From the NCBI RefSeq assembly GCF_018122735.1, contig NZ_JAGRRD010000001.1, positions 830,382 through 894,381 of the forward strand: a stretch of 64,000 bases of DNA, written 5' to 3'. Position 1 is the stretch's first letter. Each line of letters opens with the position of its first letter. Shown here in pieces: positions 43,901-51,026 of the stretch. A program made the position numbers and the translations under genes. The notes under the pieces were generated by a model. The model did not search any database. It saw nothing but the letters and a program-made list of their open reading frames with translations, and was not told the origin of the DNA. The stretch comes from Azoarcus sp. L1K30 (GTDB lineage Bacteria > Pseudomonadota > Gammaproteobacteria > Burkholderiales > Rhodocyclaceae).

Positions 43901-44363
43901 CGACCGCCATCTGCATGCGCAGTTGCGCGACATCGAGTCGCTCGCCCTGGCGCAGAAAAAAGGTGTATGCCGCCAGAAAGGCAGGGGGCGCCATGCGGTA
44001 GAGCGCGGTCGTGGCCGGTACCAGAACGACGTCGGCTTCGCTGCGGGTAATGGCATACAGCGTGGACAGCCGCTCCGAAATCAGATCCTGGTGGGGAGAG
44101 AAGCTGTCGTAGGGCAGCGTCTCCCAGTCCGGCAGCAGGTGCAGCCTCAGACCAGGAGCAAGCCAGGCGATTTCGTCTTGCAGGCGCTGGGCGTCCAGCG
44201 GGTTGGCGGTCACCACCGCAAGCATGCGTCCGCGCCCTGCCAGTTGCGCAATGGCGAGCGCATCGGCCGATCCGCTCAGCGGCGGCAGATCGAGGCGGAA
44301 GCCGGGCTTGGGCAAGGGCTTCAGTGAGACGGCAGGCAGCAGGGCATCGATGAAACGGGGCAT
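40908..44363 (-). CDS. mfd: Transcription-repair coupling factor Mfd
   Basis: DNA translocase that removes RNA polymerase stalled at lesions and recruits UvrA for repair of the transcribed strand. The 1151-residue protein has the UvrB-homology region (about 1-340), the polymerase-interaction domain around GDPVVHVSHGIGRYLGL (about 475-550), and the helicase lobes with Walker A GDVGFGKTE near residue 640 and the DEEH box VIIDEEHRFG near 737. GRVGRSHHQAYAYLL marks motif VI, and a C-terminal TRCF domain ends it. A perfect TATAAT lies 42 bases before the ATG. Confidence 0.98.
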   Translation of the reverse strand: MPRFIDALLPAVSLKPLPKPGFRLDLPPLSGSADALAIAQLAGRGRMLAVVTANPLDAQRLQDEIAWLAPGLRLHLLPDWETLPYDSFSPHQDLISERLSTLYAITRSEADVVLVPATTALYRMAPPAFLAAYTFFLRQGERLDVAQLRMQMAVAGYTHVTQVVSPGEFSVRGGLVDLYPMGSPLPYRIDLFDDEVETIKTFDPDTQRTVYPVKEIRLLPAREFPLDEKGRNHFRGSFREIFEGDPTRAAIYKDVSNGIAPAGIEYYLPLFFDDVATLFDYLPVDTPVLLHRDVPTAIEEFWRDTRSRYDLLKGDRTRPVMPPGHLFLTDEGFFAALKNRPRLVIGASGDSGESGESPVALPLPEVAVERKATDPLHRLKTFCSTFDGRVLLVADSPGRRETMADYLAEYGLKPDASADFAAFAESDARLALGTAPLGAGFILPGARIAIITETELYAATARTRARRDNRKAATMEGWLRDLSELKVGDPVVHVSHGIGRYLGLLHMNLGEGDTEFLHLEYNGGDKLYVPVSQLHVITRYAGADPENLELHRLGSGQWDKAKKKAAMQVRDTAAELLSLYAQRAARPGHRFDFRQHDLDAFTEAFGFETTPDQQAAIDAVIADMKSGRPMDRLVCGDVGFGKTEVALRAAFIAVADGKQVVVLCPTTLLAEQHYQTFADRFADWPIKIAELSRFKSAKEQTEALTQLGEGKVDIIIGTHRLLQKDVIFKRLGLVIIDEEHRFGVRQKEALKQLRSEVDILTLTATPIPRTLGLAMEGMREFSVIATAPQKRLAIKTFVHRWSKGIVREAVLREFKRGGQVYFLHNEVDTIENMRNDLAELLPEARIVVGHGQLPERELERVMRDFTQQRANLLLCTTIIETGINIPTANTIIMNRADRFGLAQLHQLRGRVGRSHHQAYAYLLTDANAKPSAQAQKRLEAIAMMDELGSGFYLAMHDLEIRGAGEVLGESQSGEIQQIGFSLYTEMLKRAVKDLQAGKEPDLSQPLEVVSEINLHTPALLPTQYCPDVQERLTLYKRLANCEAEEELRDLQEELIDRFGELPPQTQALLETHRLRMLLKPWDVQKLDASEAQISIQFGKDAPIDPTKVIFLIQKDRSTKMAGPNKLVRRASLPELKLRVKAVRDLLDAVKA

Positions 44364-44404
44364 GAGGCGTAACCGGGGCCAGAAAGGCAGCAGGAAAGGC
44401 GGTG

Positions 44405-44410
44405 ATTATA
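44405..44410 (-). promoter_or_regulatory. -10 element of mfd
   Basis: The minus strand reads TATAAT, a perfect -10, 42 bases before the mfd ATG, within GCCTATAATCACC. No -35 hexamer stands out 16-18 bases upstream. Confidence 0.6.
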
Positions 44411-44457
44411 GGCGAAGCGACACGCCACTGACGGGCACGCGCCGCGCACCCGCAGGT

Positions 44458-45015
44458 TCAGGCGAAGACGTCGATTGCCGGCGGCTGTTGCGGGGCGGCG
44501 CTGACAGCCTCGACCAGACGCGACAAAGCGGCTTCAAGCCGGGCGGCTATTGGGTCGTCCTCGCCGCGTTGAGCGTTGAGCTCCTGGCGGGCTTCGCTTG
44601 CCATGCGTTGGGCCATGGTGGCCACCTGACGGTCCTGTGGCGACGGGTCGGTGGGGGCCAGCGCGGCCGCACGAATGCGTTCGGCACGCGCGATCGTCTC
44701 TTCCGCCGTTCTGCCCTCCGAGGTGTCGATGCGGACTTCGCCGCCGACCGCATAGCGCTTGTCGTCCGGCCCGGTCTCGAAGGTGTAACTGGCGCGTGCA
44801 GTGATCAGGTCGCCGCCGGCAGAAATGTGCGCCTGTTCGTGGGCACGCACCTGCTCATCGCGCTGCTTGAGTTGGTCAAGTTCGCGCTGTTCTGCCGCAC
44901 TCAGTTCGGCGTCGTTCCCAATGCGCTTGTTCGATTCACTCGCCTTGCCCTGCGAGCTTGCAGGAAGCTGGGGCCAGTAAGCATGGGTCGCGCCTCCAAT
45001 GCCTGCGCTGATCAT
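44458..45015 (-). CDS. SprA-related / CJM1_0395 family putative metalloprotease
   Basis: 185 residues with a zinc-peptidase-like HExxH motif, HEQAH at residues 59-63, in the block VRAHEQAHISAGGDLITARASYTFETGPDD, part of which is the hallmark of the SprA-related family (PF12118). The fold continues as YAVGGEVRIDTSEGRTAEETIARAERIR and ends in a helical, Ala- and Glu-rich tail. No clear signal peptide is seen. Biological role of the family is poorly known. The start at 45015 lacks a ribosome site. It lies upstream of mfd with a 94-base gap, and a 12-base element upstream is shared with the gene at 51893-52324. Confidence 0.8.
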   Translation of the reverse strand: MISAGIGGATHAYWPQLPASSQGKASESNKRIGNDAELSAAEQRELDQLKQRDEQVRAHEQAHISAGGDLITARASYTFETGPDDKRYAVGGEVRIDTSEGRTAEETIARAERIRAAALAPTDPSPQDRQVATMAQRMASEARQELNAQRGEDDPIAARLEAALSRLVEAVSAAPQQPPAIDVFA

Positions 45016-45068
45016 GTGTGTGAAGAATTGACGGACGCTCTGCTGACGAAGATTGATATTCCCATGGA

Positions 45069-45080
45069 CTCAGCTTAGAC
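45069..45080 (-). promoter_or_regulatory. Shared upstream element (copy 1), possible promoter
   Basis: CTCAGCTTAGAC on the plus strand, read as GTCTAAGCTGAG for the minus-strand gene, ends 53 bases before its ATG. An identical 12-mer occurs at 52379-52390. A GAACTT lies 19 bases upstream of TCTAA here, but not at the second copy. Confidence 0.35.
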
Positions 45081-45149
45081 GTCGAAGCGCAGCTGCGAAA
45101 GTTCGCATCTGATGTGGGTTCGAGCGTTCCCGACGCTTTGCATAGTGCC

Positions 45150-45860
45150 TCAGACCGGGTTTGGCGGTACTTCGTCCTGCGAATGAGGGAGAGTCGGATC
45201 AACCATCTTCGGCGAAGGCAGGGGCAGGTGCCGGAGCATCCATTCCGTGGCGAAGGCTGCACTGCGCTGCAGCATGTCCAGACTGGCGACACCGTTATCC
45301 ATCTGCCCCGCATCCTGCCAGGCCCGCGTCGATTTAAGCAGCTCGAAGGCGCTGCGCAGGATGGCCCGCTCGGGGTCGTCGTGGCCGACCACGAACAGCG
45401 TCGGTACGCCCACGTTGCGAAGCGGGCCCGCGCCGGCCAGATCGGGGCGCCCGCCAAGGCACACGAGGGTATTGAAGCGCTCGGGGTTCTTCGCTGCGGC
45501 ACGCACGATCGCGGCACTGGCGGTGCCAAAGGCGAGCAGACCGATGGACAGGTCGCACAGGGGCGGCTGGTTCTCGATCCAGAGTGCAGCCGCAAGCAGG
45601 CGGTCGGTGAGGCGGGTCACGTTGTAACGCGCGTCGGGATCGTGCAACTCTTCCTGATGATTGAGCAGATCGAGCGCCAGTGTGGCGAATCCGGCCCGTT
45701 GCAGGGCGCCCGCAACCAATGCCTGTCTCTGGTGCAGGATGGGGTTCGATCCGGGTTGCAGGATCAGCACCAGACCGCGCACATCCGGCGCATGTGCGAG
45801 TGTGGCGTCGAGCCAGATGCCCTCGGCAGGAATGCGGATCGGGGTAGTTCGCAGCTTCAC
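45150..45860 (-). CDS. Dienelactone-hydrolase-like alpha/beta hydrolase, possibly without serine nucleophile
   Basis: 236 residues of alpha/beta hydrolase type: GLVLILQPGSNPILHQRQ near residues 29-46, where related phosphoribosyltransferase-linked hydrolases show HGSGSSR-like loops, then ALQRAGFATLALDLL, LLAFGTASAAIV at the expected nucleophile elbow and VPTLFVVGHDD with the acidic residue. The elbow usually reads GASTGAAAA; here it reads FGTASAA, so a Ser in standard position is not evident. The gene begins at GTG 45860, 87 bases after the radical SAM gene, and lies on the same strand. Enzyme activity is therefore doubtful and the substrate unknown. Confidence 0.75.
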   Translation of the reverse strand: MKLRTTPIRIPAEGIWLDATLAHAPDVRGLVLILQPGSNPILHQRQALVAGALQRAGFATLALDLLNHQEELHDPDARYNVTRLTDRLLAAALWIENQPPLCDLSIGLLAFGTASAAIVRAAAKNPERFNTLVCLGGRPDLAGAGPLRNVGVPTLFVVGHDDPERAILRSAFELLKSTRAWQDAGQMDNGVASLDMLQRSAAFATEWMLRHLPLPSPKMVDPTLPHSQDEVPPNPV

Positions 45861-45947
45861 GGGGTGTTGGCCTGGAGGTTTGGCAATCGTCGGAATTCAG
45901 CATCTCACAGGCGCATGCGCGATCGCAACTCCCCGATGAGCCTGATG

Positions 45948-47021
45948 TCAGCTGCTGCGGTGAATGGGTACCGCAAGCCGACGGTGTCCGAAGGGCGTCG
46001 CGAATGCGCCAAATCGGCCCGCCAGCCGTGCGCCGCAATCGGGGCAGTGCCCGTCGGCATCGAGCCGGTAAGCCAGGATGTCGTACCAGTCACGCACGAT
46101 CAGGGACGCGCCGCAATTCGCACAGAACGTGGTGCCGCCCGCGACATCGTGCACATTGCCGGTGTAGACATGCCGGAGGCCCTTGTCGAGCGCCAGCTGA
46201 CGCGCGCGTGCGAGGGTTGCCGGCGGCGTCGGGGGCAGCGTGTCAAGCTTGAAATCGGGATGAAAGGCGCTGAAGTGCAGCGGAATCTCCGCGCCCAGAT
46301 GGTCGCGCACCCAGCAGGCAAGGGCGCCGATCTCCGCGTCGCTGTCGTTGCGCCCGGGAATGAGCAGGGTGGTGAGCTCGATCCACACATCGGTCTCGTG
46401 CCTGAGCCAGACCAGGGTATCGAGCACCGGCTGCAGGTGGGCGCCGCACAGCTGTACGTAGAACTCGTCGGTGAAGGCCTTCAGATCGACGTTGGCCGCG
46501 TCCATGCAGGCGAAAAAATCGCCTCGCGCCTGTTCGGTGATATAGCCCGCGGTTACCGCAACGGTGTGTATTCCCCGCGCATGGCAGGCTGCAGCCACGT
46601 CGATGGCGTATTCGGCAAAGATTACCGGGTCGTTGTAGGTGAAGGCGACGCTGGCACAACCGTGAGCCTGCGCGGTGGCGGCAATTTCGTCGGGGGAGGC
46701 GGCATCCATCAGGCGATCCATGTCGCGCGACTTGGAGATATCCCAGTTCTGGCAAAACTTGCACGCCAGGTTGCAGCCTGCGGTACCGAAGGAAAACACG
46801 CTGCTGCCCGGGTAGAAGTGGTTCAGTGGCTTCTTTTCGATCGGATCGATGCAGAATCCCGAACTGCGCCCGTAAGTCGTCAGCTGCATCGCGTCGCCTT
46901 CCCGCATGCGCACGAAGCAGGCCCCGCGCTGGCCCTCGTGCAGGCGGCAATAGCGCGGACACAGATCGCACTGTATGCGTCCGTCGCCAAGCCGGTGCCA
47001 GTACCTCGCCGGATGATTCAT
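45948..47021 (-). CDS. amrS: AmmeMemoRadiSam system radical SAM enzyme
   Basis: Radical SAM protein of 357 residues encoded with AMMECR1 and MEMO1 homologues, the combination that defines the AmmeMemoRadiSam system. The [4Fe-4S] motif CNLACKFC (Cys83, Cys87, Cys90) follows VFSFGTAG. Upstream lies a Cys cluster CDLCPRYC (Cys18, 21, 25) and Cys35. At the C-terminus two CxxC pairs (FCANCGA and HCPDCGA) suggest a rubredoxin- or zinc-ribbon-like metal site. It resembles pyruvate formate-lyase activases in the core. The ATG at 47021 shares one base with the AMMECR1 stop (TGATG). I know of no settled reaction for the family. Confidence 0.93.
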   Translation of the reverse strand: MNHPARYWHRLGDGRIQCDLCPRYCRLHEGQRGACFVRMREGDAMQLTTYGRSSGFCIDPIEKKPLNHFYPGSSVFSFGTAGCNLACKFCQNWDISKSRDMDRLMDAASPDEIAATAQAHGCASVAFTYNDPVIFAEYAIDVAAACHARGIHTVAVTAGYITEQARGDFFACMDAANVDLKAFTDEFYVQLCGAHLQPVLDTLVWLRHETDVWIELTTLLIPGRNDSDAEIGALACWVRDHLGAEIPLHFSAFHPDFKLDTLPPTPPATLARARQLALDKGLRHVYTGNVHDVAGGTTFCANCGASLIVRDWYDILAYRLDADGHCPDCGARLAGRFGAFATPFGHRRLAVPIHRSS

Positions 47022-47593
47022 CAGGCGCCTCCGGGATTTTCCTGCCACGAACGCACCTCGAAACGGGCCGCCATCAGTCCACCGGCCGGACGATCCGGCG
47101 GCAGCCCCGCCTTTCGCTTGAGGGCGGCGAGAAAGCCCTCGGGTTCGGGCAGTTGGTCCCACACCTGGGGCAGGAAAGTCGCACTTCGGCAGCCGGCGAA
47201 GAGAATGAGACCATGCTCTCGGGGGACGATCTGGCGCATGAGATCGGACTCGTCGTCGAAGTCGATGAACTCGGGGGAAGACAGTACCGAGACTTCGATC
47301 TGTGTGGACGCCAACTCGTCCCAGGCCAGCGGAGGGAAGCGCGGATCTTTCGTTGCCGCAGCGACGGCGTTCTGAACCACATCTTCGCCGAGGGGGCGCT
47401 GTGGCCGGATGCTGCCGATACAGCCGCGCAATTCGCCATGGCGGTGCAGGGTGACGAAGCAGGCGCCGCGTTCGCGAAGCCGGGCATCGTCGGCGGGGGC
47501 CGGGCCTGCGCCCAGATGATGTGCGATGGCCTGCCGCGCGCGGGCAAGCAGCAGGGGGCCGAGATCCAGCCGGTCAGTGGTGTTGGGATGCAT
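47021..47593 (-). CDS. amrA: AmmeMemoRadiSam system protein A (AMMECR1 domain)
   Basis: 190-residue protein of the AMMECR1 family, which occurs from archaea to humans. The family signature LRGCIGSIRPQRPL is at about residues 51-64, preceded by RERGACFVTLHRHGEL and followed by AVAAATKDPRFPPL, IEVSVLSSPE and the C-terminal TFLPQVWDQLPEPEGFLAALKRKAG in part. The start at 47593 overlaps the MEMO1 gene by 20 bases, and the stop overlaps amrS by one, so all three are surely cotranslated. The invariant RGCIG motif suggests an active or binding site but the role is unknown. Confidence 0.95.
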   Translation of the reverse strand: MHPNTTDRLDLGPLLLARARQAIAHHLGAGPAPADDARLRERGACFVTLHRHGELRGCIGSIRPQRPLGEDVVQNAVAAATKDPRFPPLAWDELASTQIEVSVLSSPEFIDFDDESDLMRQIVPREHGLILFAGCRSATFLPQVWDQLPEPEGFLAALKRKAGLPPDRPAGGLMAARFEVRSWQENPGGA

Positions 47594-48398
47594 GCGGCAC
47601 CATGTCACAGAAGGCAATGCTGGCATAGCCGACGACCCGATCGCGATCGCCCGCGGTATCGCCCGAATTGCGCAGGTCGAGAAGGTGAGGCACGAGTCCA
47701 TGGCGGGCCGCGACGCGAAGCAGCCCGTTGACGGGTGTCGCGCCACAGGCCTGCTCATGGTCGAGCACCGGACGCATGGCGAGAATCTCATTCACCGTTG
47801 CGCGATCCTGACGTTGCGCCTGATGGTAGGAATGAAAGTGGGACAGGTCGGAGCTAATCACGATCAGCGTCTCCGAGTCACCCCACACGGCTTCGATCAC
47901 TTCGGCCACCGCGTCGGTCGAGGCCTCGCCCACCAGGATCGGAAGAATGGTGAAACGATCGAAAACGCTCTGCAGGAAGGGGAGTTGAACCTCCACGCAA
48001 TGCTCGTAAGCGTGGGGGCGGTCGTCGACGACCACGTCCGGGCGGCATTGCAGCAGGGCCCATCGCGCACGATCAAGGGGCAAACTTCCCATTGGCGTGG
48101 CGAAGACCTGCGCTGCAGGCAACGCGAATCCATTGACCGGAAGCCGGTGGTTCGGCCCCAGGATCACGACCCGGCGAATCTCGTCGCGCACGGGTAGCAG
48201 CGCACCGTAGGCCGCAGCAGCAACGGAGCCGGAATAAATGTAGCCCGCGTGCGGCACGATGATCGCCTTCGGAGGGGGGACCTTTTCCAGCGGCACGGCA
48301 GTGGCCATCAGGTCGCTCACCTGGAGGCGCAGCACGCGCTCATCGGCCGGATAGAACTGCCCGGAAACCGCGGCCGGGCGGATGGAAGCAATCGCCAT
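47574..48398 (-). CDS. amrB: AmmeMemoRadiSam system protein B (MEMO1 family)
   Basis: 274-residue MEMO1-type protein, structurally related to class III extradiol dioxygenases and LigB. Metal-ligand candidates line up with the human protein: His50 in VPHAGYIYSG, His84 in LGPNHRLP and Cys218 in QACGATPV; Asp184 and His187 in ISSDLSHFH are also in place. Human MEMO1 binds copper or iron at these residues, so a metal site is likely. The gene is first in the trio, with a perfect TATAAT in front of it, partly in the stop codon of the upstream transporter-like gene. Enzymatic function is not established. Confidence 0.95.
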   Translation of the reverse strand: MAIASIRPAAVSGQFYPADERVLRLQVSDLMATAVPLEKVPPPKAIIVPHAGYIYSGSVAAAAYGALLPVRDEIRRVVILGPNHRLPVNGFALPAAQVFATPMGSLPLDRARWALLQCRPDVVVDDRPHAYEHCVEVQLPFLQSVFDRFTILPILVGEASTDAVAEVIEAVWGDSETLIVISSDLSHFHSYHQAQRQDRATVNEILAMRPVLDHEQACGATPVNGLLRVAARHGLVPHLLDLRNSGDTAGDRDRVVGYASIAFCDMVPHASQHH

Positions 48399-48430
48399 TG
48401 ACGGCCCTTTCTTGCAATGTCAGCGCTTTC

Positions 48431-48436
48431 ATTATA
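48431..48436 (-). promoter_or_regulatory. -10 element of the AmmeMemoRadiSam operon
   Basis: The minus strand reads TATAAT, a perfect hexamer that spans the stop codon (TAA) of the upstream gene. Predicted initiation near 48424 gives a leader of about 26 bases containing AAAGGG. No -35 hexamer was convincing. Confidence 0.5.
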
Positions 48437-49697
48437 GGCCGAGTGTGTGCCAGCCGATGCCCAGCGCCAAGCCCAGCGCAACCGAACTCATGCCGGCAAT
48501 CACCTTCTTGCCCAGCGCGCGTCCGCCGATGGCAATGGCCATCGCGGTCTTGAAGCTGAGGTTTGCAATCATGCCCAGCCCGATGGCAATCGCTGTCGGC
48601 TGCAGTTCAAGCTTGCCCAGTGTGAACAGGCGCAAGCTGGACAAGGCAATGGCATCGATGTCGGTGAAGCCCGATACCACCGCGAGAAGATAGATCCCGC
48701 CCGTGCCGGCAAAATCGGACAGCCAGGCTGCACATACCAGGACGAAGGCGTAGAGCGCACCAAAGCCCAGCGCAGTTTGCAACTCGGTCGGGTTGCTGGT
48801 GCGTGGCAGGACCGCATCGCCGCCGGTACTGAGCGAACGCCAGGTCAGAAGGAGGGCAACGGTGCCCAAGGCGACTGCGGGCACGACCACGTAGAGCAGC
48901 GCGGGCAACACATGCGGCGCCACCACCGCCGCGATCACTGTCACCCGCAGCACCATCACAAGATTGGCGAGCACGATCACCAGCGCGGCCATCGGCGCAA
49001 GCCCTTCTGCAACCCGTGCGTTGCGCGCGTAGACCATGGTCGTCGCAGTGCTCGACGCCAGTCCGCCGAACACGCCGACGAAGGCGGCACCATGCTTTGC
49101 CCCCACCAGTTGCAATGCCGCGTAACCGGCCAGACTGACGCCCGAAATCAGTACGACCATCCACCAAACCTGATACGGGTTGAGCGCACCGAAGGGGCCA
49201 ATCTCCTCGTTCGGCAGGATGGGCAGAATGACCAGCGACAGCACACAGAACTGCAGGATCGAAATCCAGTCGCGCGGTTCGAGGCGGGTGGCAATGCCGC
49301 GCAACTGGCTCTTGAAGTAGAGCAGTACGGTGGTGCCGACCGCGAGCATCACCGCGATCGTAGCGTAGCCCAACCAAACCGCGGTACCCAGGCAGTAGCA
49401 CACCATCAGCGCGGCCACGGAGGTGGTGCCGGGATCGCTTGGGTCGGGGTGGCGAAGGTAGGCGGCGATGATCATCGCGCCGATGACGGCCATCCCCACC
49501 GCAAACGGGGCAATACTCTGCAAGTGCTGGCCGAGCAGGCCGGTGAGGGCGCCAAGCAGGGCCACCAGGCCGAAGGTGCGCAAGCCTGCACGCGCAGACG
49601 GAACGCGTTCGCGCTCGAGGCCGATCAGCAGACCGATTCCGATCGCGGTGAGGAATGTCTCGATGTGGCCCGGGTCGACCGATGTCGAAAACGGCAT
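48432..49697 (-). CDS. MgtC/SapB and DUF4010 domain integral membrane protein
   Basis: 421-residue polytopic protein. The N-terminal third resembles MgtC/SapB (IETFLTAIGIGLLIGLERER, AGLRTFGLVALLGALTG), with the conserved acidic-arginine RER turn after the first helix. The remainder is a DUF4010-type domain with VFGGLASSTATTMVYA and VSGFTDIDAIALS. About 11-12 membrane helices can be drawn. No substrate is known; MgtC relatives affect Mg2+ stress. The ATG at 49697 has an AGAAGGA ribosome site a few bases upstream; the longer frame to 49829 overlaps ispD. It is divergent from ispD and precedes the AmmeMemoRadiSam genes by 33 bases. Confidence 0.85.
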   Translation of the reverse strand: MPFSTSVDPGHIETFLTAIGIGLLIGLERERVPSARAGLRTFGLVALLGALTGLLGQHLQSIAPFAVGMAVIGAMIIAAYLRHPDPSDPGTTSVAALMVCYCLGTAVWLGYATIAVMLAVGTTVLLYFKSQLRGIATRLEPRDWISILQFCVLSLVILPILPNEEIGPFGALNPYQVWWMVVLISGVSLAGYAALQLVGAKHGAAFVGVFGGLASSTATTMVYARNARVAEGLAPMAALVIVLANLVMVLRVTVIAAVVAPHVLPALLYVVVPAVALGTVALLLTWRSLSTGGDAVLPRTSNPTELQTALGFGALYAFVLVCAAWLSDFAGTGGIYLLAVVSGFTDIDAIALSSLRLFTLGKLELQPTAIAIGLGMIANLSFKTAMAIAIGGRALGKKVIAGMSSVALGLALGIGWHTLGL

Positions 49698-49814
49698 GCG
49701 TGCGTCCTTCTGTGGGCGATTGTTCACGATGCTGGGTGCCGCGGCGGTGGCGCGGCGCGCAATGCGTAATAACTGTAGTCGATTACGGGGTGTGGTGGAA
49801 CTGTGCGCTGCAGT

Positions 49815-49820
49815 TAGAAT
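49815..49820 (+). promoter_or_regulatory. -10 element of ispD with probable leaderless start
   Basis: TAGAAT ends seven bases before the ispD ATG. Initiation at the usual 6-7 bases downstream would fall on or next to the A of the ATG. No ribosome-binding sequence lies between (CCGCGCC). The preceding TG of an extended -10 is absent and the -35 is weak. Confidence 0.5.
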
Positions 49821-49827
49821 CCGCGCC

Positions 49828-50538
49828 ATGCAGACATTTCACCCCAAGCACTTCGCCATCGTGCCGGCAGCAGGTAGCGGCACGCGCATGGCTTCAGACC
49901 TGCCCAAGCAATACTTGCCGCTGCTGGGACAGCCCTTGATTCGCCATGCGCTGACGACCCTGTGTGCGGCACCGGAGATCGACAAGGTCTTTGTCGTGCT
50001 CTCGGTGGGTGATGCGCAGTGGCGGCAATATGACTGGCGCGCACTCGGCCCCAAGCTGGTACCCCTGTTCTGCGGTGGCGCAACCCGCGCGGATTCGGTG
50101 CTCGCGGGCTTGCGCGCGATCGCCGGGGAGACCGCCGCGTCGGACTGGATTCTCGTTCATGACGCTGCCCGTCCCTGTCTGGCACCGTGGCATATCGACA
50201 AGCTGATCCGTGAGCTCGCACACGACGAAGTCGGCGGACTGCTCGCGGTGCCGGTTGCCGACACGCTCAAGCGTGCCGACGCGCATCGCCATGTCGCGGC
50301 GACGCTGCCGCGCGACAGTTTGTGGCAGGCGCAGACGCCGCAGATGTTCCGCTACATCATGCTGCGCCGGGCGCTGGAGGGCTGCAGTGCGGTGACCGAT
50401 GAAGCGAGCGCGATCGAGGCCGCAGGTTTGAGGCCCCGCCTGGTCGAAGGTGACGCGACCAATCTGAAGGTCACCTATCCGCTGGATCTGCATCTGGCAG
50501 AATGGATTCTCAACAATCGCGAGGGCTTGAACCGATGA
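49828..50538 (+). CDS. ispD: 2-C-methyl-D-erythritol 4-phosphate cytidylyltransferase
   Basis: Third MEP pathway step, coupling MEP to CTP. The 236-residue protein opens with the nucleotidyltransferase motif [22 protein letters not shown] (in part), contains the [13 protein letters not shown] and [10 protein letters not shown] blocks, and the ALQTPQ-like AQTPQMFRY with conserved Thr-Pro-Gln. [12 protein letters not shown] and [11 protein letters not shown] complete the family pattern. The ATG at 49828 is supported by family length; the longer open frame upstream overlaps the divergent membrane-protein gene. Its stop overlaps the ispF start (ATGA). Confidence 0.98.
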
Positions 50539-51026
50539 ATGTGCCATTTCGCGTGGGCCAGGGCTTCGACGTCCATGCGCTGGTTGCCGGTCGCCCCCTC
50601 ATTGTCGGCGGCGTTGCAATTCCCTTTGCGCAGGGGCTGCTCGGACATTCCGACGCCGACGTGCTGCTCCACGCGCTCACAGATGCGCTCCTCGGTGCGG
50701 CCGGACTTGGCGATATTGGCCGCCTGTTTCCCGACTCCGACCCTCAGCATGCAGGTGCGGACAGCCGCGTACTGCTGCGTGTCGCGTTCGGGAAGGTCAA
50801 GGCCGCCGGCTGGGGGGTCGTGAACGTGGATGCAACAATCATCTGCCGGGCGCCCAGGATCATGCCCTATGCCGAGCAAATGGTGAGCAATGTTGCGGCC
50901 GATCTGGAAATGGACTGCGCAGCCGTCAACATCAAGGGGAAGACCACCGAAAAACTCGGCTTTACCGGGCGCGGCGAAGGCATCGCCGCCCAGGTGGTGG
51001 TACTGCTCGCCCGGCGCGAGGCCTGA
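50535..51026 (+). CDS. ispF: 2-C-methyl-D-erythritol 2,4-cyclodiphosphate synthase
   Basis: Fifth MEP pathway step, cyclising CDP-ME 2-phosphate with loss of CMP. The 163-residue trimeric zinc enzyme shows GQGFDVHAL, with metal ligands Asp12 and His14, and the third ligand His in [25 protein letters not shown] and [20 protein letters not shown] are further signatures. The start overlaps the end of ispD, the two genes being adjacent (and sometimes fused) in many bacteria. It converges on the HAD gene with a 28-base gap and no clear terminator. Confidence 0.98.

What the first reader, a model, noticed from the sequence alone, without database searches (positions are those of the whole stretch)
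45948..48398. Complete AmmeMemoRadiSam operon (MEMO1 - AMMECR1 - radical SAM) with tight overlaps
Seen: three minus-strand genes overlap by 20 and 1 bases, with MEMO1-type metal residues (His50, His84, Cys218), the AMMECR1 RGCIG motif and a radical SAM CxxxCxxC centre plus extra Cys clusters at both ends. Known: these families recur together in bacteria and archaea, and the human homologues matter clinically, yet I know of no settled reaction. Inference: the three act together, perhaps as a radical-based modification in which AMMECR1 and MEMO1 bind substrate or metal. This is the strongest candidate here for an undescribed biochemical system.
Basis: partly seen in the sequence, partly recalled or inferred. 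Interest (0 to 1): 0.75.

Follow-up and report, generated by a model that had tools for sequence, protein, structure and literature searches.

The report
AmmeMemoRadiSam operon, reaction still unsolved
A betaproteobacterium carries the known but biochemically unsolved trio MEMO, AMMECR1 and a radical SAM enzyme as one tight operon; related genomes usually keep the three together even where the genes lie apart, so they very probably serve one pathway, whose reaction is still to be found.

Summary
MEMO/AmrB (47574-48398), AMMECR1/AmrA (47021-47593) and radical SAM/AmrS (45948-47021), all minus strand, overlap by 20 and 1 bases and score well above NCBI's curated cut-offs for the named "AmmeMemoRadiSam system". 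This is a new member of a known kind; what is missing is the reaction. In 249 genomes of the phylum the families occur in 70 (rS), 66 (A) and 68 (B) genomes, all three in 65; in 23 of these 65 no rS and A copies were found within 5 kb. MEMO and AMMECR1 are fused in 21 of 130 loci. The radical SAM core resembles pyruvate-formate-lyase activase (Z 22.4), yet the window genome and 58 of 70 rS genomes show no glycyl-radical enzyme. In 31 of 71 loci, mostly betaproteobacterial, an alpha/beta hydrolase follows rS; in the window and ten relatives its catalytic residues are lost. Best reading: a MEMO-AMMECR1 metalloenzyme pair and a radical step on one pathway that does not need oxygen. Substrate unknown.

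The parts
47574..48398 (-). MEMO-family protein, AmrB (274 aa)
   Evidence: TIGR04336 269.1 bits, PF01875 173 bits; MEMO1 chains E 1.4e-21
48249..48251 (-). codon of H50, putative metal ligand of AmrB (H84 at 48147-48149, C218 at 47745-47747)
   Evidence: numbering; conserved in at least 97% of 107 aligned sequences; positions computed by hand from ATG 48398
47021..47593 (-). AMMECR1-family protein, AmrA (190 aa), starts inside amrB (20-base overlap)
   Evidence: TIGR04335 188 bits, PF01871 156.6 bits; PDB 1wsc, 1vaj, 1zq7; start
47414..47428 (-). RGCIG motif of AmrA (residues 56-60)
   Evidence: conserved in at least 97% of 111 aligned sequences; positions computed by hand from ATG 47593
45948..47021 (-). 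radical SAM enzyme AmrS (357 aa), 1-base overlap with amrA
   Evidence: TIGR04337 628.9 bits; model pLDDT 92.0, pTM 0.91; PFL activase 3cb8 Z 22.4
46752..46775 (-). CxxxCxxC (C83, C87, C90) of AmrS; N-terminal C18-C35 at 46917-46970, C-terminal C300-C329 at 46035-46124
   Evidence: positions computed by hand from ATG 47021
45150..45860 (-). fourth gene of the putative operon: dienelactone-hydrolase-like protein that seems to lack the catalytic Ser and His (pseudo-hydrolase)
   Evidence: follows rS on the same strand, gap 87 bases; homologue in 31 of 71 loci with room downstream; Gly at the nucleophile position and Asn at the His position of the alignment; no Pfam hit of its own, its relative in L087 hits PF01738
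48432..49829 (-). MgtC/DUF4010 membrane protein upstream of amrB, same strand (start uncertain); membership of the operon not claimed
   Evidence: PF13194, PF02308; homologue in 13 of 68 loci
49828..50538 (+). IspD, divergent neighbour (context only)
   Evidence: same similarity cluster as the L084 gene, which hits PF01128; the window's own copy was not scanned; 18 of 68 loci
50535..51026 (+). IspF, divergent neighbour (context only)
   Evidence: same similarity cluster as the L053 gene, which hits PF02542; the window's own copy was not scanned; 16 of 68 loci

Best explanation
This is an AmmeMemoRadiSam operon. Shown here: the three families are coupled in evolution, MEMO and AMMECR1 form a unit that is often one polypeptide, and rS is a radical SAM enzyme of PFL-activase type with extra Cys sets that does not depend on a glycyl-radical enzyme. 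Inferred: AmrS uses a 5'-deoxyadenosyl radical to modify a small or nucleotide-like substrate directly; the AmrA-AmrB pair handles the same substrate or the product, with the His-His-Cys metal site of AmrB (H50, H84, C218; D184 and H187 beside it) doing metal-dependent chemistry that needs no molecular oxygen, and the conserved RGCIG loop of AmrA completing the pocket. In many betaproteobacteria an alpha/beta hydrolase belongs to the operon; in the window and ten relatives, most of them named as Rhodocyclales genera, it looks catalytically dead, perhaps a structural or regulatory part.
For: Co-occurrence: R 70, A 66, B 68 of 249 genomes, all three 65; Fisher p 1.1e-52 (R/A), 1.0e-52 (R/B), 1.2e-58 (A/B), not corrected for kinship. 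In 23 of the 65 no rS and A copies were found within 5 kb; in G006 they are 1.55 Mb apart on one contig, and 19 of 20 stretches fetched around A or B copies show no rS. 21 of 130 loci fuse MEMO to AMMECR1, linkers 3-122 residues. Of 54 separate-gene loci, 36 overlap B with A and 32 overlap A with rS by my gene calls. Metal-site and RGCIG residues are conserved. rS fold: PFL activase Z 22.4, next kind of entry 16.2. No PF01228 match in G000 nor in 58 of 70 rS genomes; rS and PF01228 independent, p 0.55. All three families ring in the controls Thermotoga maritima and Methanocaldococcus jannaschii, anaerobes from general knowledge, so oxygen should not be needed in general.
Against: Four genomes have rS over the cut-off without A or B (G022, G127, G174, G185); the only hit of G127 and one of two in G022 are a divergent form with an extra C-terminal part, and in G185 the gene is in pieces, but G174 and the other copy of G022 look normal. 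G159 has rS and MEMO without AMMECR1; G109 has A and B without rS; G223 has only a weak MEMO match. Among the named controls Haloferax volcanii has A but neither B nor rS, and Thermus composti B (and an rS ring) without A, so parts can work alone. Humans have MEMO1 and AMMECR1 but, as I recall, no rS. The genomes are related, so the p-values overstate; many are fragmented, so some 'unlinked' pairs may be linked. The fused model leaves the orientation of the two domains unsure (pTM 0.75). Nothing here names the substrate. A review passage reports copper-dependent superoxide formation by human MEMO1 (PMC7694686), which would be an oxygen-using activity.
Confidence: 0.4

Rival explanations
1. MEMO is a metal (iron or copper) handling or redox protein rather than an enzyme of a pathway; AmrA is its partner and AmrS is a client or supplier, so the operon serves metal or redox homeostasis.
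For: Human MEMO1 is solved with iron (7kq8) and copper (7l5c); Memo1 binds reduced copper and protects against copper-mediated redox activity (PMC9477392: title, start of abstract and passages seen); a review passage reports copper-dependent superoxide formation (PMC7694686). The ligand residues are conserved here.
Against: A pure metal binder does not explain the tight tie to a radical SAM enzyme: 65 of 70 rS genomes have both A and B.
Confidence: 0.2
2. The pathway modifies a nucleic acid base or nucleotide: AmrS does the radical step as TYW1 does in wyosine synthesis, and AmrA, of the RAGNYA fold like Tyw3 (recalled), binds the nucleic acid.
For: PMC6969169 calls Ammecr1 a RAGNYA domain protein (passage). 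The rS fold also matches TYW1 (2yx0, Z 14.3) and RlmN (3rf9, Z 15.7), as it does many radical SAM enzymes. A phosphoribosyltransferase lies within nine genes in 14 of 71 loci, and a nucleoside-recognition membrane protein follows some MEMO-AMMECR1 fusions.
Against: The matches to TYW1 and RlmN are close in Z to those to lipoyl synthase (15.1), QueE (14.9) and viperin (14.4). Neighbours are confined to single lineages. No nucleic-acid-binding domain was matched in the Pfam scan of the window proteins.
Confidence: 0.2
3. The pathway modifies an isoprenoid.
For: IspD in 18 and IspF in 16 of 68 loci with at least 3.5 kb upstream, divergent from the operon, the window among them. A link of Memo to isoprenoid genes is recalled from the abstract of Burroughs et al. 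2019, not seen here.
Against: IspD is on the other strand in all 19 loci that have it, is absent in 50 of 68 and seems to follow lineage, so shared descent of gene order explains it.
Confidence: 0.1
4. AmrS is an activase that puts a protein radical on AmrA (RGCIG loop) or AmrB.
For: PFL activase is clearly the closest fold (Z 22.4 against 16.2 for the next kind) and the best off-family profile (TIGR02493 63.4 bits); the window genome shows no glycyl-radical enzyme to be its target; RGCIG is conserved.
Against: Human AMMECR1 keeps LRGCIG (PMC5502304, passage) though humans, as recalled, have no AmrS; Haloferax has A without an rS ring; AMMECR1 matched no glycyl-radical domain.
Confidence: 0.07
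5. Chance neighbourhood of three unrelated genes.
For: Some genomes hold single parts (controls).
Against: 65 of 249 genomes hold all three against 7 of 249 that hold one or two; 23 of the 65 without linkage seen; fusions.
Confidence: 0.02

Closest known systems
AmmeMemoRadiSam system (NCBIfam TIGR04335, TIGR04336, TIGR04337; amrA, amrB, amrS)
   Same: All three proteins over the curated cut-offs, adjacent and overlapping; 2 of 6 plasmid records with an rS gene annotate it as amrS.
   Different: Nothing essential; the gene behind rS is here a hydrolase relative that looks catalytically dead.
Human MEMO1 (PDB 7kq8, 7l5c, 3bcz)
   Same: Same fold over the MEMO domain (Z 34.6, rmsd 1.8, 257 residues, model of a related fusion); the regions of H50, H84, D184 and H187 align; C218 lies beyond that alignment and is matched by inference.
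   Different: The human protein works without a radical SAM partner (recalled); 26-30% identity for the fusion model.
Extradiol dioxygenases of LigB type (aminophenol dioxygenase, DesB, DOPA dioxygenase, MhpB)
   Same: Same fold (Z 13.9 to 16.5).
   Different: The metal-site Glu is a Cys in the Memo family (PMC3296727, PMC9477392, passages); here C218. The family rings in anaerobes among the controls.
AMMECR1 structures PH0010 (1vaj), ST0229 (1wsc), MM0484 (1zq7)
   Same: Same fold (Z 19.9 to 21.9, 30-33% identity, model of a related fusion).
   Different: Archaeal; their entry titles give no function.
Pyruvate formate-lyase activating enzyme (3cb8, 3c8f)
   Same: Radical SAM core, CxxxCxxC, Z 22.4, rmsd 2.5 over 225 residues.
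   Different: AmrS has an extra N-terminal and a C-terminal Cys set outside the aligned range 49-287, scores 63.4 against a cut-off of 231.75 for TIGR02493, and its genome shows no glycyl-radical enzyme.

Membership tests
AmmeMemoRadiSam system | rS over the TIGR04337 cut-off | tested here: met
   628.9 against 220 bits
AmmeMemoRadiSam system | AMMECR1 protein over the TIGR04335 cut-off | tested here: met
   188 against 99 bits
AmmeMemoRadiSam system | MEMO protein over the TIGR04336 cut-off | tested here: met
   269.1 against 26 bits
AmmeMemoRadiSam system | the three in one genome, usually linked | tested here: met
   overlapping genes; one match of each family in G000
LigB-type extradiol dioxygenase | fold | tested here: met
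   Z 13.9 to 16.5 for several annotated dioxygenases, on a model of a related fusion, not of the window protein
LigB-type extradiol dioxygenase | two His and one Glu at the iron | tested here: not met
   conserved Cys C218 where the Memo family is said to have Cys for Glu (rule from PMC3296727 and PMC9477392)
LigB-type extradiol dioxygenase | oxygen-dependent ring cleavage | not testable with these tools
   needs an enzyme assay
Glycyl-radical enzyme activase (PFL-AE type) | radical SAM core of PFL-AE type | tested here: met
   Z 22.4, rmsd 2.5, 225 residues
Glycyl-radical enzyme activase (PFL-AE type) | score over the PFLA cut-off | tested here: not met
   63.4 against 231.75 bits
Glycyl-radical enzyme activase (PFL-AE type) | a glycyl-radical enzyme in the genome | tested here: not met
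   no PF01228 match at E <= 0.001 in G000
alpha/beta hydrolase (dienelactone hydrolase-like), fourth gene | Ser-Asp-His triad | tested here: not met
   by alignment the window has Gly and Asn at the Ser and His positions; 21 of 35 aligned proteins have the triad, 11 lack the His, 3 are cut short

The most novel reading that the evidence does not exclude
AmrS is an activase whose target is its own partner: it abstracts a hydrogen from the conserved RGCIG loop of AMMECR1 (or from MEMO), so that the MEMO-AMMECR1 pair is a radical-bearing metalloenzyme outside the glycyl-radical enzyme fold, a second kind of SAM-activated protein radical system, of which eukaryotes kept only the target proteins.
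Probability: 0.06. Interest if true: 0.85.

Novelty: new member of a known kind. Interest (0 to 1): 0.32.

Why it matters
MEMO1 and AMMECR1 are disease-linked human proteins without an agreed biochemical function, and AMMECR1 is on a published list of top-priority uncharacterised archaeal families (429 of 524 genomes; PMC6393860, passage). A bacterium that keeps both, plus the radical SAM partner, in one small operon is a good place to find the reaction. The survey adds three usable facts: the trio co-occurs even when no linkage is seen, it does not need a glycyl-radical enzyme, and in many betaproteobacteria a hydrolase gene joins the operon.

Tried and rejected
Selenocysteine: several second rS copies were flagged with one in-frame TGA. 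Read out, the TGA in L031-L038 stands right after the conserved end of the protein and looks like the normal stop; no sign of a selenoprotein. rS as activase of a classical glycyl-radical enzyme: rejected (12 of 70 rS genomes have one, G000 has none; independent, p 0.55). LigB-type oxygen-dependent ring cleavage: unlikely, Cys for Glu and presence in anaerobes, though a review passage reports superoxide formation by human MEMO1. A natural MEMO-AMMECR1 fusion was folded instead; both domains are sure, their mutual orientation is not, and no model coordinates were in the Python box for measuring contacts. TYW3 or another RAGNYA protein did not appear among the fold matches shown; this is no evidence against. 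Promoter and terminator scan 44300-50600: no promoter-like site (0.8 expected) and two terminator-like sites (4.0 expected); uninformative. The Burroughs 2019 paper is not held, and I made no search aimed at the hydrolase neighbour, so whether that neighbour is already in print is unknown. PMC6520446 was listed for AMMECR1, but a search of its main text found no such word.
Full report
WHAT IS THERE. The window lies at G000:C1:830382-894381 of a 4.98 Mb genome. The nearest named relatives of its radical SAM protein are Thauera, Zoogloea and Aromatoleum (76-79% identity), so the host is a betaproteobacterium, probably of the order Rhodocyclales (inferred). The three genes are as described: amrB 47574-48398, amrA 47021-47593, amrS 45948-47021, all minus strand, with 20-base and 1-base overlaps. 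NCBIfam scores are 1.9 to 10 times the curated cut-offs. Structure-solved relatives are MEMO1 for B, three archaeal AMMECR1 proteins for A and pyruvate formate-lyase activase for rS.

CONSERVED RESIDUES. On alignments of relatives (107 B, 111 A, 130 rS; the window gene is counted twice, as WIN and L001, and most sequences are from one phylum) the positions conserved in at least 97% include, in B, H50, H84, H133, D184, H187, C218; in A, R56-G57-C58-I59-G60, D83, R85, F86, E100, K161; in rS, C18, C21, C25, C35, C83, C87, C90, C300, C326, C329. The human counterparts named in PMC9477392 (passage) are His 49, 81, 192, Asp 189 and Cys 244; the first four lie in the stretch aligned, the Cys lies beyond it and its match is inferred.

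CO-OCCURRENCE. One sample of 249 genomes of the phylum was searched with all three families. Over the cut-off: rS 70, A 66, B 68; all three 65; rS alone 4 (G022, G127, G174, G185); rS and B 1 (G159); A and B 1 (G109); B alone 1 (G223). A does not occur without B in this sample. In 42 of the 65 an rS and an A copy lie within 5 kb, in 23 they do not; on single contigs the distance is 1.55 Mb in G006, 0.33 Mb in G103 and 9.5 kb in G037; the other 20 are on different contigs, where a broken assembly could hide linkage. In G103 the MEMO gene stays next to rS and only AMMECR1 is away. Genomes are related and some families weigh heavily, so the Fisher values are only a guide. Among 14 named control genomes, at E <= 0.001, Thermotoga maritima, Methanocaldococcus jannaschii, Sulfolobus acidocaldarius and Methanosarcina acetivorans ring for all three; four controls exceed the rS cut-off, but the output does not say which. 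Haloferax volcanii rings for A only, Thermus composti for B and rS but not A, and E. coli, Bacteroides ihuae and Lactococcus lactis for rS only; rS rings below the cut-off may be other radical SAM activases.

FUSION. 23 rows show MEMO and AMMECR1 in one frame; two (L122, L127) are fragmentary, leaving 21 of 130 fetched loci, two of them (L058, L059) nearly identical. MEMO comes first in all 21. Of 20 further loci fetched around A or B copies, 18 have both in one ORF; 19 of the 20 show no rS in the fetched 7.7-14.7 kb and one (L152) does (these loci were chosen, not drawn at random).

STRUCTURE. A natural fusion (Thiobacillus, L055) was modelled with 58 sequences: pLDDT 94.6, pTM 0.75. Its first part matches MEMO1 (Z 34.6, rmsd 1.8, 257 residues), its second PH0010 (Z 21.9, 2.7, 184). 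The pTM is too low to state how the domains face each other. The window's AmrS was modelled with 49 sequences: pLDDT 92.0, pTM 0.91; PFL activase leads with Z 22.4 (rmsd 2.5, 225 residues), then NifB 16.2, RlmN 15.7. The stretches before residue 49 and after residue 287, which hold the extra Cys sets, were not aligned to PFL activase.

NOT A CLASSICAL ACTIVASE. The glycyl-radical domain PF01228 was found in 37 of 249 genomes, in 12 of the 70 with rS and not in G000. rS therefore works without such a target in most of its genomes.

FOURTH GENE. The neighbour counts rest on the 80 best named loci of a capped scan, nearly all betaproteobacterial by identity, and the window. Of 77 of these of at least 5 kb, 71 have 1.2 kb or more behind rS. 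In 31 of the 71 an alpha/beta hydrolase relative follows on the same strand, in 27 within 150 bases, in 12 with a 1- to 5-base overlap (one search gives 31 of 75 with four unnamed loci added). Of 35 aligned relatives 21 have an intact Ser-Asp-His triad; 11 have lost the His and 10 of these also the Ser: the window, Zoogloea (3), Aromatoleum (2), Thauera, Cognatazoarcus, Propionivibrio, a Rhodocyclaceae MAG and an unclassified proteobacterium; the remaining three are cut by contig ends (names). So the window keeps an intact reading frame for what looks like a dead enzyme. The catalytic assignment rests on alignment only.

OTHER CONTEXT. IspD in 18 and IspF in 16 of 68 loci with 3.5 kb upstream, divergent; a LigT-type phosphoesterase in 13 of 68; a phosphoribosyltransferase within nine genes in 14 of 71 (Pfam names of one representative each). 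Around MEMO-AMMECR1 fusions away from rS a YdjM-like membrane protein and a divergent peptide-binding transporter recur (by eye; Pfam for L148 and L135). These neighbours seem to follow lineage and do not name a substrate.

WHAT IS IN PRINT. Five papers in the library use the word AmmeMemoRadiSam; the two whose passages I read only annotate genes (PMC9062700, PMC9861516). PMC7694686 (passages) and PMC3296727 (passages) treat MEMO as a dioxygenase-fold protein; the first reports copper-dependent superoxide formation by human MEMO1, the second thinks LigB activity unlikely because of the Cys. PMC5502304 (passages) says the function of AMMECR1 is unknown and reports a disease variant in LRGCIG; PMC6393860 (passage) lists AMMECR1 among top-priority uncharacterised archaeal families. 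I met no defined reaction of the trio in the eight searches, which do not cover most subscription journals or bioRxiv.

VERDICT. It is a typical member of a named system, so novelty is low; the open question is old and worth solving. My mechanism (radical step by AmrS, metal chemistry by the AmrA-AmrB pair on one pathway that does not need oxygen) is inference from anatomy and inheritance; the substrate is unknown.

Noticed in passing
L039:1693-4331, L040:6163-8798, L041:6107-8727: A divergent relative of AmrS (417-426 bits with my model) with a long C-terminal extension lies directly before a Cys/Met-metabolism PLP enzyme in three loci (Pfam for L039 and L041, by eye for L040), with no MEMO or AMMECR1 match in the fetched stretch; in L039 an NRPS-like protein precedes it (by eye). 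It looks like a separate radical SAM system.
   Followed up: partly
L031:6016-10073, L035, L036, L037:5858-11941, L142:5920-8726: A second rS copy with its own MEMO-AMMECR1 fusion (in L142 the fusion without rS), with a nucleoside-recognition (Gate) membrane protein downstream (Pfam for L031, L037, L142; by similarity for L035, L036). Some fusions start with a hydrophobic stretch that looks like a signal peptide (by eye), which would place a MEMO protein outside the cytoplasm.
   Followed up: partly
G174 and G185 (L046 is the G174 locus): A full-length rS in G174 without a MEMO or AMMECR1 match in the genome; in G185 of the same genus group the rS gene is in pieces, as if it decays without its partners.
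   Followed up: no
L081, L090, L113, L116: Contigs titled Rhizobium, Halobacteria archaeon and Chitinophaga pinensis carry the trio with 69-73% identity in rS to this betaproteobacterium; the titles are probably wrong or the bins mixed.
   Followed up: no
window:44458-45015: SprA-related protein (PF12118) follows the pseudo-hydrolase on the same strand; relation to the operon unknown.
   Followed up: no
L135, L136, L137, L138, L139, L144, L148: MEMO-AMMECR1 genes away from rS are followed by a YdjM-like membrane protein, directly in all but L135, and most have a divergent peptide-binding ABC transporter gene on the other side (by eye; Pfam for L148 and L135).
   Followed up: partly
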